From a bacterium (GTDB lineage Bacteria > Blakebacterota > Blakebacteria > Blakebacterales > Blakebacteraceae), in NCBI GenBank assembly GCA_025774615.1, contig JALGVQ010000083.1:1-12028 (forward strand): 12,028 nt of DNA. Reading direction: 5' to 3'. The position numbers and the translations under genes are program-made. Positions 7,796 to 12,028 of this stretch are shown in pieces. The notes below the pieces were generated by a model. That model saw nothing but the letters and a program-made list of their open reading frames with translations, made no database searches and was not told where the DNA came from. Within the stretch, counting starts at the first letter, position 1. Every line of letters begins with the position of its first letter.

Positions 7796-7831
7796 ATGTT
7801 CGACCATGAACATCTGCTTTGCGAACTCTAA
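7796..7831 (+). CDS. Possible 11-codon upstream ORF overlapping the start of higB
   Basis: ATG 7796 is followed by ten codons and TAA at 7829-7831 (MFDHEHLLCEL). It has the better placed ribosome binding site (AAGGAA at 7784-7789), while higB's own ATG at 7806 lies 16 bases from it and has none closer. It could couple or limit toxin translation, or simply be chance. Confidence 0.25.
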   Translation: MFDHEHLLCEL

Positions 7832-8150
7832 ACTGCGAAAGCAGTGCAATGATAGTAGAGAAATGAGGAAGGTTTGGGGTGACAAGCGTGCCAGGAAAAT
7901 GAGTGTGAGGCTGCAAGAGATCCATGCCGCCGAAACACTGGATGATCTGAGCCATGCACATGGACATTTTCATGAATTACATGGAGACCGCAAAGGGCAG
8001 ATCTCGTGCTCTCTGGATGGATCATATCGCTTGATACTGAAGCCCGCTGAAGATCCCCCGCCGCATAAGGCCGATGGCGGATTGGATTGGAAGGAAGTCA
8101 GAGGGCTGATTGTCATCGGAGTGGAGGACTACCATGGCTCGTCTACCTGA
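7806..8150 (+). CDS. higB: HigB/RelE-type toxin (mRNA interferase family)
   Basis: This 114-residue protein belongs to the HigB (RelE/ParE superfamily) toxins that occur with HigA-ImmA-type antitoxins. It starts at ATG 7806 with the family's characteristic opening (NICFANSKLRKQCND), followed by HFHELHGDRKGQISCSL (54-70), YRLIL with R75, and the C-terminal GLDWKEVRGLIVIGVEDYH (92-110). Upstream codons in this frame are closed by a TGA at 7794, so the start is secure. Family members cleave mRNA, often on the ribosome; the target here is inferred only. The toxin gene is first and overlaps the antitoxin start by 17 bp, the reverse order typical of hig modules. Translation may be weak because the closest ribosome binding site is badly spaced. 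Length is normal and no key segment is missing. Confidence 0.9.
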   Translation: MNICFANSKLRKQCNDSREMRKVWGDKRARKMSVRLQEIHAAETLDDLSHAHGHFHELHGDRKGQISCSLDGSYRLILKPAEDPPPHKADGGLDWKEVRGLIVIGVEDYHGSST

Positions 8151-9249
8151 AACTGAATACCGCCCGGATGTATTTGTACACCCGGGAGATCATCTCCAGG
8201 AGTTGCTGGAAGAGCAGGGGATGACACAGGTGGAATTGGCGCGACGAACTGGTCGCCCCATTAAGACGATCAACGAGATTGTAAAGGGACGGATATCAAT
8301 CACTACTGAAACGGCACTGCAACTGGAACGCGTATTCGGAGTGCCTGCACACTTCTGGGTGAATCTGGAAAAGAACTACCAGGAATATCTTGCACGGATT
8401 AAGGAACATCAAAGGCTCAAGAGTCAGATTGGATGGCTACAGAAATTACCGGTGAAGGAAATGATGCAATGGGGGTGGATTGAGAAACGTAATAGCGAGA
8501 CTGAACAGGTTGATGAGCTGTTGAGTTTCTTCGGAGTTTCTTCAAAGAAGTCGTGGACAGAGGTATATGCGGTTCCACAATCAGCCTATCGCCTGTCAGC
8601 TTCCTTCAAGGTCGATAAGCTGGCGCTTGCCTCCTGGCTTCGACAGGGTGAGCTCACAGCAATGGAGATTAATTGCCAGCCATTCAATCGTGACCGATTT
8701 CTTGATGCATTAAGTGAAATCAGAAAACTGACAGTTGAGCCTCCCCATGTGTATCAAGACAGGATAAGGGAGCTTTGTGCATCGGCCGGTGTTGCAGCAG
8801 TGTTTATTCCAGAATTGCCGAATACCAGGGTATCTGGTGCCACACGATGGCTATCTCCAACCAAGGCACTGATTCAGTTAAGCTTGCGATACAAAGCTGA
8901 TGATCACCTGTGGTTCACCTTCTTCCATGAGTCTGGCCATATCCTCCGACATGGAAAGAAACTGGTTTTTATTGATGGAGATGAAAAGAGGGGGAATAAG
9001 AAGGGGGACATGGAGGAGGAGGCAAACAGATTTGCATCTTCTTTCCTGATTCCCGACGACAAATACCACGTATTCATTGCTGCTAAAGATTTTTCATGTA
9101 CCAATATCAAACTATTTGCCAAGGAGTTGGAAATTGCTCCGGGCATTGTCGTCGGACGGTTACAGCACAATGGTCATCTGGATTACAGTAAATGTAACAG
9201 TCTCAAGCGGCGGTTGGTGTGGGGTTCCCCTGAAGTGAGTGTGCAGTGA
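8134..9249 (+). CDS. higA: HigA-type antitoxin fused to an ImmA/IrrE metallopeptidase domain
   Basis: This 371-residue two-domain protein starts at ATG 8134, chosen because GGAGG lies 6 bases upstream; an in-frame TTG at 8110 would add eight residues with no such site. Residues 17-75 form the HigA helix-turn-helix (GMTQVELARRTGRPIKTINEIVKG), followed by the VFGVPAHFWVNLEKNY segment typical of HigA. The C-terminal half is an ImmA/IrrE (COG2856) zinc peptidase with H265-E-S-G-H269 and a downstream Glu cluster EEEANRFASSF (E294-E296) that supplies the third ligand. Both zinc motifs are intact, so it may be an active protease. It should bind and neutralise the toxin encoded just upstream and repress the shared promoter. 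In phage and ICE systems ImmA peptidases cleave repressors, so proteolysis of itself or a partner could link stress to toxin release; that is inference. Confidence 0.9.
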   Translation: MARLPETEYRPDVFVHPGDHLQELLEEQGMTQVELARRTGRPIKTINEIVKGRISITTETALQLERVFGVPAHFWVNLEKNYQEYLARIKEHQRLKSQIGWLQKLPVKEMMQWGWIEKRNSETEQVDELLSFFGVSSKKSWTEVYAVPQSAYRLSASFKVDKLALASWLRQGELTAMEINCQPFNRDRFLDALSEIRKLTVEPPHVYQDRIRELCASAGVAAVFIPELPNTRVSGATRWLSPTKALIQLSLRYKADDHLWFTFFHESGHILRHGKKLVFIDGDEKRGNKKGDMEEEANRFASSFLIPDDKYHVFIAAKDFSCTNIKLFAKELEIAPGIVVGRLQHNGHLDYSKCNSLKRRLVWGSPEVSVQ

Positions 9250-11271: not shown

Positions 11272-11811
11272 TCAACCCCCTCGTTCGTGGTACCTGGCGA
11301 TCAGCTTCTCCTGATCCTCGGTCTCGATGGATCCTGGCCGCAGCTCGCGCACCCGGTCGATGGCCGCCTGCGGCTCGTCGCCCAGGTGGACGAAATAGGC
11401 CGCCAGAAAGGTGCCCGTGCGTCCCTTGCCCGCCGCGCAGTGCACGCCCACCCGGCCGCCGGCGGCGATGACCGCATCGACCCGGTCGACGAACTCGACG
11501 ATCTGTTCGAGCTTCGGGGCATGGAAGTCCTCCACGGGCAGGTGCAGGGGGGTGAGGTCGTGCCGCTGCAGGGCCGCGGCGTCCAAGGGCGTCTCGGTGA
11601 GGGTGACCAGCAGGTCGATGCGCTGGCGGTTCAGGTAGTCGAGGTCGCTGTCCAGAGCTCCGCCCGTACCAGGGCGCGGCAAGCCGGCGACCTTCTCGTC
11701 GATGACCCAGGAAAAACCGTCCTGCATGGGTGTGGAACCGCCTTTCTGTTCTCCCGAGCAGCCGTTGAAGAGGATGGCCAGGGCGATTAGCAAGGTCACT
11801 GTCGCTCTCAT
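11272..11811 (-). CDS. DUSP23-like protein tyrosine/dual-specificity phosphatase lipoprotein
   Basis: This 179-residue predicted lipoprotein carries a cysteine-dependent phosphatase domain. It starts at ATG 11811, with AGGAG about 8 bases upstream. Residues 1-18 are a signal peptide ending in the lipobox F-N-G-C (C18), the same F-N-[A/G]-C pattern as in the beta-propeller lipoprotein. The catalytic P-loop is intact, H124-C125-A-A-G-K-G-R131-T (HCxxGxxRT), with the general-acid loop VEDFHAP (D95). The FSWV...VAGLPRPG start, the LVTLTE strand and the ending RPGSIETEDQEKL are strikingly like the eukaryotic DUSP23 (VHZ) subfamily. It should remove phosphate from Tyr or Ser/Thr, or from another small phospho-compound, outside the cytoplasm, attached to a membrane. 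Its codons are clearly more GC-rich than those of the toxin-antitoxin island. It is a single gene, divergent from the next gene on the plus strand. Confidence 0.9.
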   Translation of the reverse strand: MRATVTLLIALAILFNGCSGEQKGGSTPMQDGFSWVIDEKVAGLPRPGTGGALDSDLDYLNRQRIDLLVTLTETPLDAAALQRHDLTPLHLPVEDFHAPKLEQIVEFVDRVDAVIAAGGRVGVHCAAGKGRTGTFLAAYFVHLGDEPQAAIDRVRELRPGSIETEDQEKLIARYHERGG

Positions 11812-11937
11812 GATTCATCTCCTGCAATGCCTCGGGTACACAGCTGTCACGACTCGATATCGTGATCCGGCCATCGACCCCAGATGATATGACCGTTTCG
11901 TCCGCCTAAAGTCCTGCGCGTCAGCTGCAGAGATGGT

Positions 11938-11973
11938 ATGAGAAGGCCGGTCTCTGTCGCGCAGTACCGTTAA
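11938..11973 (+). CDS. Possible 11-residue leader peptide
   Basis: ATG 11938 opens an 11-codon frame (MRRPVSVAQYR) closed by TAA at 11971-11973, with a weak AGAG five bases upstream. It runs through the 5' arm of the stem that hides the downstream ribosome binding site and stops inside the next hairpin. A ribosome translating or stalled here would open that stem. This is a candidate only; short frames like this can arise by chance. Confidence 0.3.
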   Translation: MRRPVSVAQYR

Positions 11974-12024
11974 GGTCTGCAGTAAGACTAACGGGCTCAG
12001 AGGCCCTCAACAAGGAGACCGGCC
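11945..12024 (+). promoter_or_regulatory. Structured mRNA leader sequestering the ribosome binding site of the gene at 12025
   Basis: GGCCGGTCTC (11945-11954) pairs perfectly over 10 bp with GAGACCGGCC (12015-12024), which contains most of the GGAG ribosome binding site and ends at the base before the ATG. Inside, CCGTTA (11967-11972) pairs with TAACGG (11989-11994), and GTCT (11975-11978) with AGAC (11985-11988), leaving a 2-base bulge and a GCAGTA loop. GGGC (11993-11996) can also pair with GCCC (12003-12006), competing with the base of the second stem. The whole resembles a closed junction that would block translation until opened by a ligand, protein or ribosome. I do not recognise a known riboswitch class. 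Confidence 0.6.
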
Positions 12025-12028
12025 ATGA
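12025..12028 (+). CDS. Start of a gene cut by the window end
   Basis: ATG at 12025-12027 is preceded by AAGGAG (12012-12017) at 7 bases spacing and by the structured leader. Only four bases are visible, so the product is unknown. It is divergent from the phosphatase gene. Confidence 0.6.

What the first reader, a model, noticed from the sequence alone, without database searches (positions are those of the whole stretch)
11938..12024. Ribosome-binding-site-masking leader with a possible leader peptide: translational attenuation or an undescribed riboswitch
A perfect 10-bp stem (11945-11954 with 12015-12024) holds the GGAG and ends exactly at the ATG. It encloses a second 10-bp bulged hairpin and a competing third stem. 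An 11-codon frame (11938-11973) runs through the 5' arm. This is the layout of erm/cat-type translational attenuators and of translation-off riboswitches. A 10-bp match placed exactly over a ribosome binding site is unlikely by chance. The regulated gene lies beyond the window.
Basis: partly seen in the sequence, partly recalled or inferred. Interest (0 to 1): 0.72.

Follow-up and report, generated by a model that had tools for sequence, protein, structure and literature searches.

The report
Transposase mRNA leader hides its start
The hairpin at the end of this window is the start of a jumping gene (an IS110/IS1111-type insertion sequence sitting in an integron recombination site), whose messenger RNA folds so that the ribosome landing site is buried, a shape kept by matching mutations in dozens of distant relatives and probably there to keep the transposase scarce.

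Summary
The window is a whole contig that breaks inside a repeated element. A second copy in the same genome reads on into MKDLTTTTSVTIGIDLGD, the N-terminus of an IS110-family DEDD transposase. The leader is the left end plus 5'UTR of an IS1111-type insertion sequence, inserted in an integron attC site. All three helices covary strongly. No Rfam family matches. The target-guiding bridge/seekRNA lies downstream of the transposase in these elements (permutation tests), so the leader is not the guide RNA. The leader peptide is not supported: its length varies from 6 to at least 50 codons, and its ATG lies upstream of the start predicted from the circle-junction promoter. The 'competing stem' is lost in the sister copy. 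Best reading: a translation-repressing 5'UTR that limits transposase synthesis, as shown experimentally for ISPpu9, here as a distinct conserved architecture. The relieving signal is unknown. New variant of a known kind.

The parts
11904..11930 (+). Flanking target: left half (R''-L'') of an integron attC site, GCCTAAA-GTCCTGCGCGTCAGCTGCAG
   Evidence: Identical 20-mer in an intact attC array of a same-genus genome (L123/L008); a 2-mismatch copy in an uninterrupted attC of the own genome (G000:C60:17665)
11931..11932 (+). Core dinucleotide AG / first bases of the insertion sequence (LE position 1)
   Evidence: LE/RE alignment of complete homologous elements: LE (AG)ATGGG-ATGAGAAGGCC, RE GGCCTTCTCAT-GGA-(AG) in most
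11938..11948 (+).
   Evidence: Matched by GGCCTTCTCAT near the right end in most complete homologues
11941..12024 (+). Predicted transposase 5'UTR / structured leader RNA (three-way junction P1-P2-P3)
   Evidence: R1 covariance model 89.5 bits, E 3e-17 (in training set); +1 predicted from junction promoters of homologues
11945..11954 (+). P1 5' arm GGCCGGTCTC
11961..11980 (+). P2: GCAG-U(bulge)-ACC-[GTTAA]-GGT-CTGC
   Evidence: Helix 2 of A4: 5 of 6 pairs with double-sided changes, 94.8% of cells paired; bulged hairpin in most homologues
11981..11992 (+). J2/3 variable single-stranded linker; with the P2 loop it holds all 7 leader differences between the two copies of this genome
11993..12006 (+). 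P3 hairpin GGGCT-CAGA-GGCCC
   Evidence: Pairs 2, 3 and 5 change on both sides in homologues; own vs swapped arms p < 5e-5
12012..12017 (+). Shine-Dalgarno AAGGAG, 3' part inside P1
   Evidence: sequence
12015..12024 (+). P1 3' arm GAGACCGGCC, flush with the start codon
12025..12028 (+). Start of the IS110-family transposase gene (ATGA...), cut by the contig end
   Evidence: Sister copy G000:C60:18542-18596 reads on as MKDLTTTTSVTIGIDLGD; homologues carry DEDD_Tnp_IS110 + Transposase_20

Best explanation
It is the left end and 5'UTR of an IS1111-type (IS110 family) insertion sequence inserted in an integron attC site. When the element excises as a circle, its right end (-35 TTGAC) and left end (-10 at the junction) should form a promoter whose transcript starts a few bases before P1. 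The RNA folds into a three-way junction whose closing helix P1 pairs the Shine-Dalgarno region and abuts the start codon, so the transposase is poorly translated from junction transcripts and from read-through alike; a trigger, or slow spontaneous opening, allows occasional synthesis. Shown here: identity of the element, the conserved covarying fold, its placement on SD and AUG, and that the target guides lie in a separate 3' RNA. Inferred: the promoter and start site, repression of translation, and what relieves it.
For: Sister copy gives the transposase N-terminus. Homologous leaders upstream of IS110 transposases in Poly30 and other Planctomycetota, with covariance-model matches in G573, G526 and G414, which were not used for training. 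Covariation: P1+P2 94.1% of cells paired vs 75.5% shuffled, 89 double-change cells vs 27.9, 0/500 shuffles; P1 own vs swapped arms p < 1e-4; P3 p < 5e-5. The 3' arm carries the SD and usually ends at the start codon, including a GTG start in L069. All 7 leader differences between the two copies fall in unpaired positions, p = 0.006. Junction promoter in 12 of 13 delimited elements, +1 at LE about 11 in most. Same P1-P2-P3 fold in a more distant attC-inserted IS110 element (L008). Experimental precedent: weakening the RBS-burying 5'UTR of ISPpu9 raised tnp'-'lacZ 26-fold (PMC8450116).
Against: No expression data; the junction promoter and +1 are consensus predictions, with poor -10 hexamers. 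The right end of the window's own element is absent from the assembly, so its RE, 3' NCR and an intact transposase are not seen. Covariation alone does not distinguish repression from another RNA function. IS4321 (IS1111 group) has no such P1, so it is not universal in the group. Many homologues used came from the training set.
Confidence: 0.75

Rival explanations
1. The leader is the bridge RNA/seekRNA of the element (upstream-NCR, IS110-group layout): its variable loops are target guides.
For: Position in the 5' NCR; structured RNA with variable loops; loops differ between the two copies while helices do not; a segment complementary to attC at 12 of 14 positions (I2).
Against: In 11 complete homologues the leader does not match its own target flanks better than others' (p 0.04-0.42 over 4 tests), while the 3' NCR does in the IS1111 orientation and order (LT p < 2e-4, RT p = 6e-4), and the 3' RNA also contains the right-end/core sequence, varying with it. 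The attC-like motif GCGCAGTACC..TCTGCA recurs in elements with unrelated left flanks (L071, L075, L087).
Confidence: 0.07
2. Autogenous control: the transposase, alone or as bridge-RNA complex, binds the leader (a small three-way junction somewhat like the bridge RNA) and locks P1, so excess transposase shuts off its own translation.
For: Both RNAs appear as a closing helix plus two hairpins, and both have a single-base bulge on the 5' side of a hairpin stem; the transposase is an RNA-binding protein in known members (PMC11187229).
Against: No sequence similarity or specific pairing between leader and own 3' RNA (p 0.24-0.46); the leader model does not hit the 3' RNA.
Confidence: 0.2
3. Pure shield against impinging transcription (IS10/IS50-type): P1 forms only in read-through transcripts, while the element's own promoter starts inside or after the 5' arm.
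For: The 5' arm lies at the extreme left end; this protection is classical for insertion sequences (own knowledge).
Against: The predicted junction +1 (LE about 11) lies before the P1 arm (LE 15) in most elements (L081 is an exception); P2 and P3 conservation is not needed for a simple shield.
Confidence: 0.12
4. Translational attenuator with leader peptide (erm/cat type) or a ligand-binding riboswitch.
For: RBS-masking stem with an upstream in-leader ATG (sequence).
Against: Leader frame not conserved and probably not transcribed; competing stem lost in the sister copy; no Rfam match; the gene is a transposase, not a resistance or metabolic gene.
Confidence: 0.04

Closest known systems
ISPpu9 transposase 5'UTR (IS110/IS492 family, Pseudomonas putida; PMC8450116)
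   Same: IS110-family transposase mRNA whose 5'UTR buries the RBS; weakening it raises translation 26-fold
   Different: ISPpu9's 5'UTR is 244 nt with an antisense activator RNA (Asr9) and a downstream sRNA (Ssr9); the paper text read here reports no covarying fold flush with the AUG; ISPpu9 is classed IS110/IS492, the present elements have IS1111-type subterminal repeats
IS1111-group elements with downstream seekRNA/bridge RNA (PMC11187229, PMC11208160), incl. attC-targeting ISKpn4/ISPst6
   Same: Subterminal inverted repeats, 3' NCR with RTG before LTG, attC as a target, promoter at the circle junction
   Different: A separate structured 5' leader is not described in the passages read; the insertion point lies next to the L'' half of attC
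IS10/IS50-type RBS-sequestering left-end repeats (own knowledge)
   Same: Left-end inverted repeat limits transposase translation
   Different: Three-way junction with conserved P2/P3; predicted to be present also in the element's own transcript
erm/cat translational attenuators (own knowledge)
   Same: SD masked in a stem
   Different: No conserved leader peptide, no inducer, gene is a transposase

Membership tests
IS1111 group of the IS110 family | DEDD transposase with DEDD_Tnp_IS110 and Transposase_20 domains | tested here: met
   Met for a complete homologue (L068); in the window's genome only the first 18 residues are visible
IS1111 group of the IS110 family | 11-13 bp subterminal inverted repeats, 7-bp left / 3-bp right extensions | tested here: inconclusive
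   ATGAGAAGGCC/GGCCTTCTCAT in most complete homologues; the window has the left repeat, its right end is not in the assembly
IS1111 group of the IS110 family | Guide RNA in the downstream NCR, top-strand complement before bottom-strand match | tested here: inconclusive
   Met in homologues; not visible for the window's element
Bridge RNA / seekRNA (as identity of the leader) | Segments matching both strands of the element's own target | tested here: not met
   Leader vs own flanks p 0.04-0.42 over four tests, 3' NCR p < 0.001
erm/cat translational attenuator | Conserved translated leader peptide | tested here: not met
   Frame length 6 to at least 50 codons, ATG upstream of the predicted +1
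Known riboswitch / Rfam family | Match to a curated covariance model | tested here: not met
   No match at gathering threshold or E <= 10
RBS-burying transposase 5'UTR (ISPpu9-like) | Structure sequesters the transposase RBS | tested here: met
   By prediction and covariation only
RBS-burying transposase 5'UTR (ISPpu9-like) | Opening the structure raises translation | not testable with these tools
   Needs reporter fusions
Integron attC site (flank) | R''/L'' and L'/R' boxes, hairpin, tandem copies, integrase in genome | tested here: met
   Intact copies fold as attC with GTTRRRY ends; integron integrase 490 bits in the same-genus genome, partial 139 bits in the own genome

The most novel reading that the evidence does not exclude
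The leader is a structural stand-in for the element's own bridge RNA: a small three-way junction with a bulged hairpin that the RNA-binding transposase, or its guide complex, recognises in its own mRNA, closing P1 over the start site and coupling transposase dosage to guide-RNA supply. That would be autogenous control of an RNA-guided recombinase by guide mimicry.
Probability: 0.18. Interest if true: 0.78.

Novelty: new variant of a known kind. Interest (0 to 1): 0.52.

Why it matters
IS110/IS1111 recombinases are the bridge-RNA systems now being developed for genome engineering, and how their dosage is controlled is little studied (one IS110-family case, ISPpu9, found in the literature searched). 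A second, covarying RNA at the other end of the element, present across phyla, gives a specific and easily testable control layer, and an annotation signature (leader ending at the start codon) for finding and delimiting such elements.

Tried and rejected
Leader as target guide: rejected by permutation test with the 3' NCR as positive control. Leader pairing with its own bridge RNA: no signal. Leader peptide: not conserved. Junction-promoter start inside the 5' arm: not predicted for most elements. First pattern (CTCAA..AGGAG..GIDL) in viral contigs: only unrelated phage genes. Searching the own genome for the element's right end (GAGACCGGCC, GGCCTTCTCAT): no right end; the repeat is missing from this draft assembly. 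PF01548 in the own genome: none, because only 18 codons are assembled. Plasmid DNA search with the leader: none. Terminator, and antisense promoter in the leader: none convincing. The structure string typed was shifted by one base in P2; the paired/unpaired totals and the conclusion (all 7 differences unpaired) are unaffected.

Full report
Observation. The perfect 10-bp inverted repeat 11945-11954/12015-12024 is real, ends directly before an ATG and overlaps the AAGGAG at 12012-12017. The exact complement of the arm was absent from 5000 dinucleotide shuffles of the leader; the fold has z = -3.9 to -5.0. Rfam has no match.

Identity. The window is the entire contig G000:C100, which stops 4 bases into the gene. 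The own genome holds a second copy of 11907-12028 at C60 (93% identical), and its contig stops 54 bases after the match. That copy reads MKDLTTTTSVTIGIDLGD, the N-terminus of an IS110-family DEDD transposase; contig breaks of this sort are typical of repeated insertion sequences. A pattern built from leader and protein motif found two copies in Planctomycetes bacterium Poly30, and a protein search gave four copies there and many more in Planctomycetota, with homologous leaders upstream.

Element anatomy. Comparing complete homologues gives a left end (AG)ATGGG-ATGAGAAGGCC and a right end TTGAC-N6/7-GGCCTTCTCAT-GGA-(AG) in most, i.e. the IS1111-group subterminal repeats with 7- and 3-bp extensions described in PMC11187229. 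In the window the element therefore starts at 11931; the sequence before it is the left half of an integron attC site. Intact attC copies exist in the own genome (C60:17665) and in a same-genus genome; the latter has a full integron integrase and the own genome a partial match.

Where the guide RNA is. The 3' NCR of homologues carries a conserved RNA (GGGYGACTGCG-[RTG]...[LTG]-GCAGCRCCC...GAGTGCGAATGGAAGC). Permutation over 11 elements shows that the 3' NCR matches its own left flank (p < 2e-4) and the complement of its own right flank (p = 6e-4), in the IS1111 order; the leader does not (p 0.04-0.42 over four tests). The right-end/core sequence in the 3' RNA varies together with the right end (ATGGAAG, ATAGAAG, ATAAAAG, TACAAG, ATAGAAC). 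So the leader is a separate RNA.

Leader structure. P1 closes a three-way junction with P2 (typically 4 bp, one bulged base, 3-5 bp, small loop) and P3 (5 bp). On the model-based alignment of 27 leaders P1+P2 pair in 94.1% of cells against 75.5% when shuffled, with 89 double-sided changes against 27.9 and a covariation score of 0.537 against 0.193; sliding partners by 1-3 columns drops pairing to 31-49% (that alignment leans towards the structure). A test independent of that alignment, swapping P1 arms between elements, gives p < 1e-4; P3 likewise p < 5e-5. The 3' arm carries the SD and in most leaders ends directly at the start codon, including a GTG start in L069. Between the two copies in the window's genome all seven leader differences lie in the P2 loop and the J2/3 linker (p = 0.006). 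Leaders found in genomes not used for training (G573, G526 with 11 copies, G414) precede IS110-type starts where enough sequence follows; one G414 copy (L108) is followed by a frame that is not recognisably IS110. A second, more distant IS110 element inserted at the other end of attC sites in the same genus (L008 and G000:C133) folds into the same three-helix shape with an unrelated P1 sequence.

Mechanism. The peptide frame varies from 6 to at least 50 codons. The simplest reading is a 5'UTR that keeps the transposase SD paired in the element's own and in read-through transcripts. ISPpu9, an IS110-family element, is an experimental precedent: weakening its RBS-burying 5'UTR raised expression 26-fold, and an antisense RNA relieves it (PMC8450116). 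What opens P1 here is unknown. P2/P3 conservation beyond what masking needs suggests a binding partner; the transposase itself is the most attractive candidate, but specific pairing or sequence mimicry with the bridge RNA was not found.

Novelty. RBS masking of an IS110-family transposase is known from ISPpu9; a compact covarying three-way-junction leader in IS1111-type elements with a separate downstream guide RNA is not in Rfam and was not found in the papers searched. I rate it a new variant of a known kind.

Noticed in passing
L008:8465-9083 and G000:C133 (L130): A second, different IS110-family element in the same genus sits at the other (L') side of attC sites, with the same three-helix RBS-masking leader.
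   Followed up: partly
11904-11930; G000:C60:17665 and 18425; L008:7681-8470: Integron cassette arrays with intact attC sites in this genus; one cassette (L008:7813-8376) encodes a RelE/HigA-like toxin-antitoxin pair; a full integron integrase is in the same-genus genome (G001:C400) and a partial match in the own genome (G000:C285).
   Followed up: partly
L064-L087, 3' NCRs (e.g. L066, L071, L080): Bridge/seekRNA of this clade readable by eye: target guides match both flanks, and the donor-guide segment varies with the right-end extension and core dinucleotide (AG, AC in L074).
   Followed up: yes
L115, L117-L119, L121 (genome G526): Eleven copies of a related element in one genome, many at contig ends, with left flanks near a CACCNCGG|AG consensus in several copies: a natural target-site series for guide analysis.
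   Followed up: partly
L053-L057 (marine gammaproteobacterial plasmids): IS110 elements of the L008 type with GAG.CTTCTCC...GGAGAAG.CTC-type stems ending at or next to the start codon.
   Followed up: partly
7806-9249: Apparent RelE/HigB-like plus HigA/XRE-ImmA-like two-gene unit upstream in the window.
   Followed up: no
11272-11811: Small lipoprotein-like dual-specificity-type phosphatase gene on the minus strand next to the attC half.
   Followed up: no
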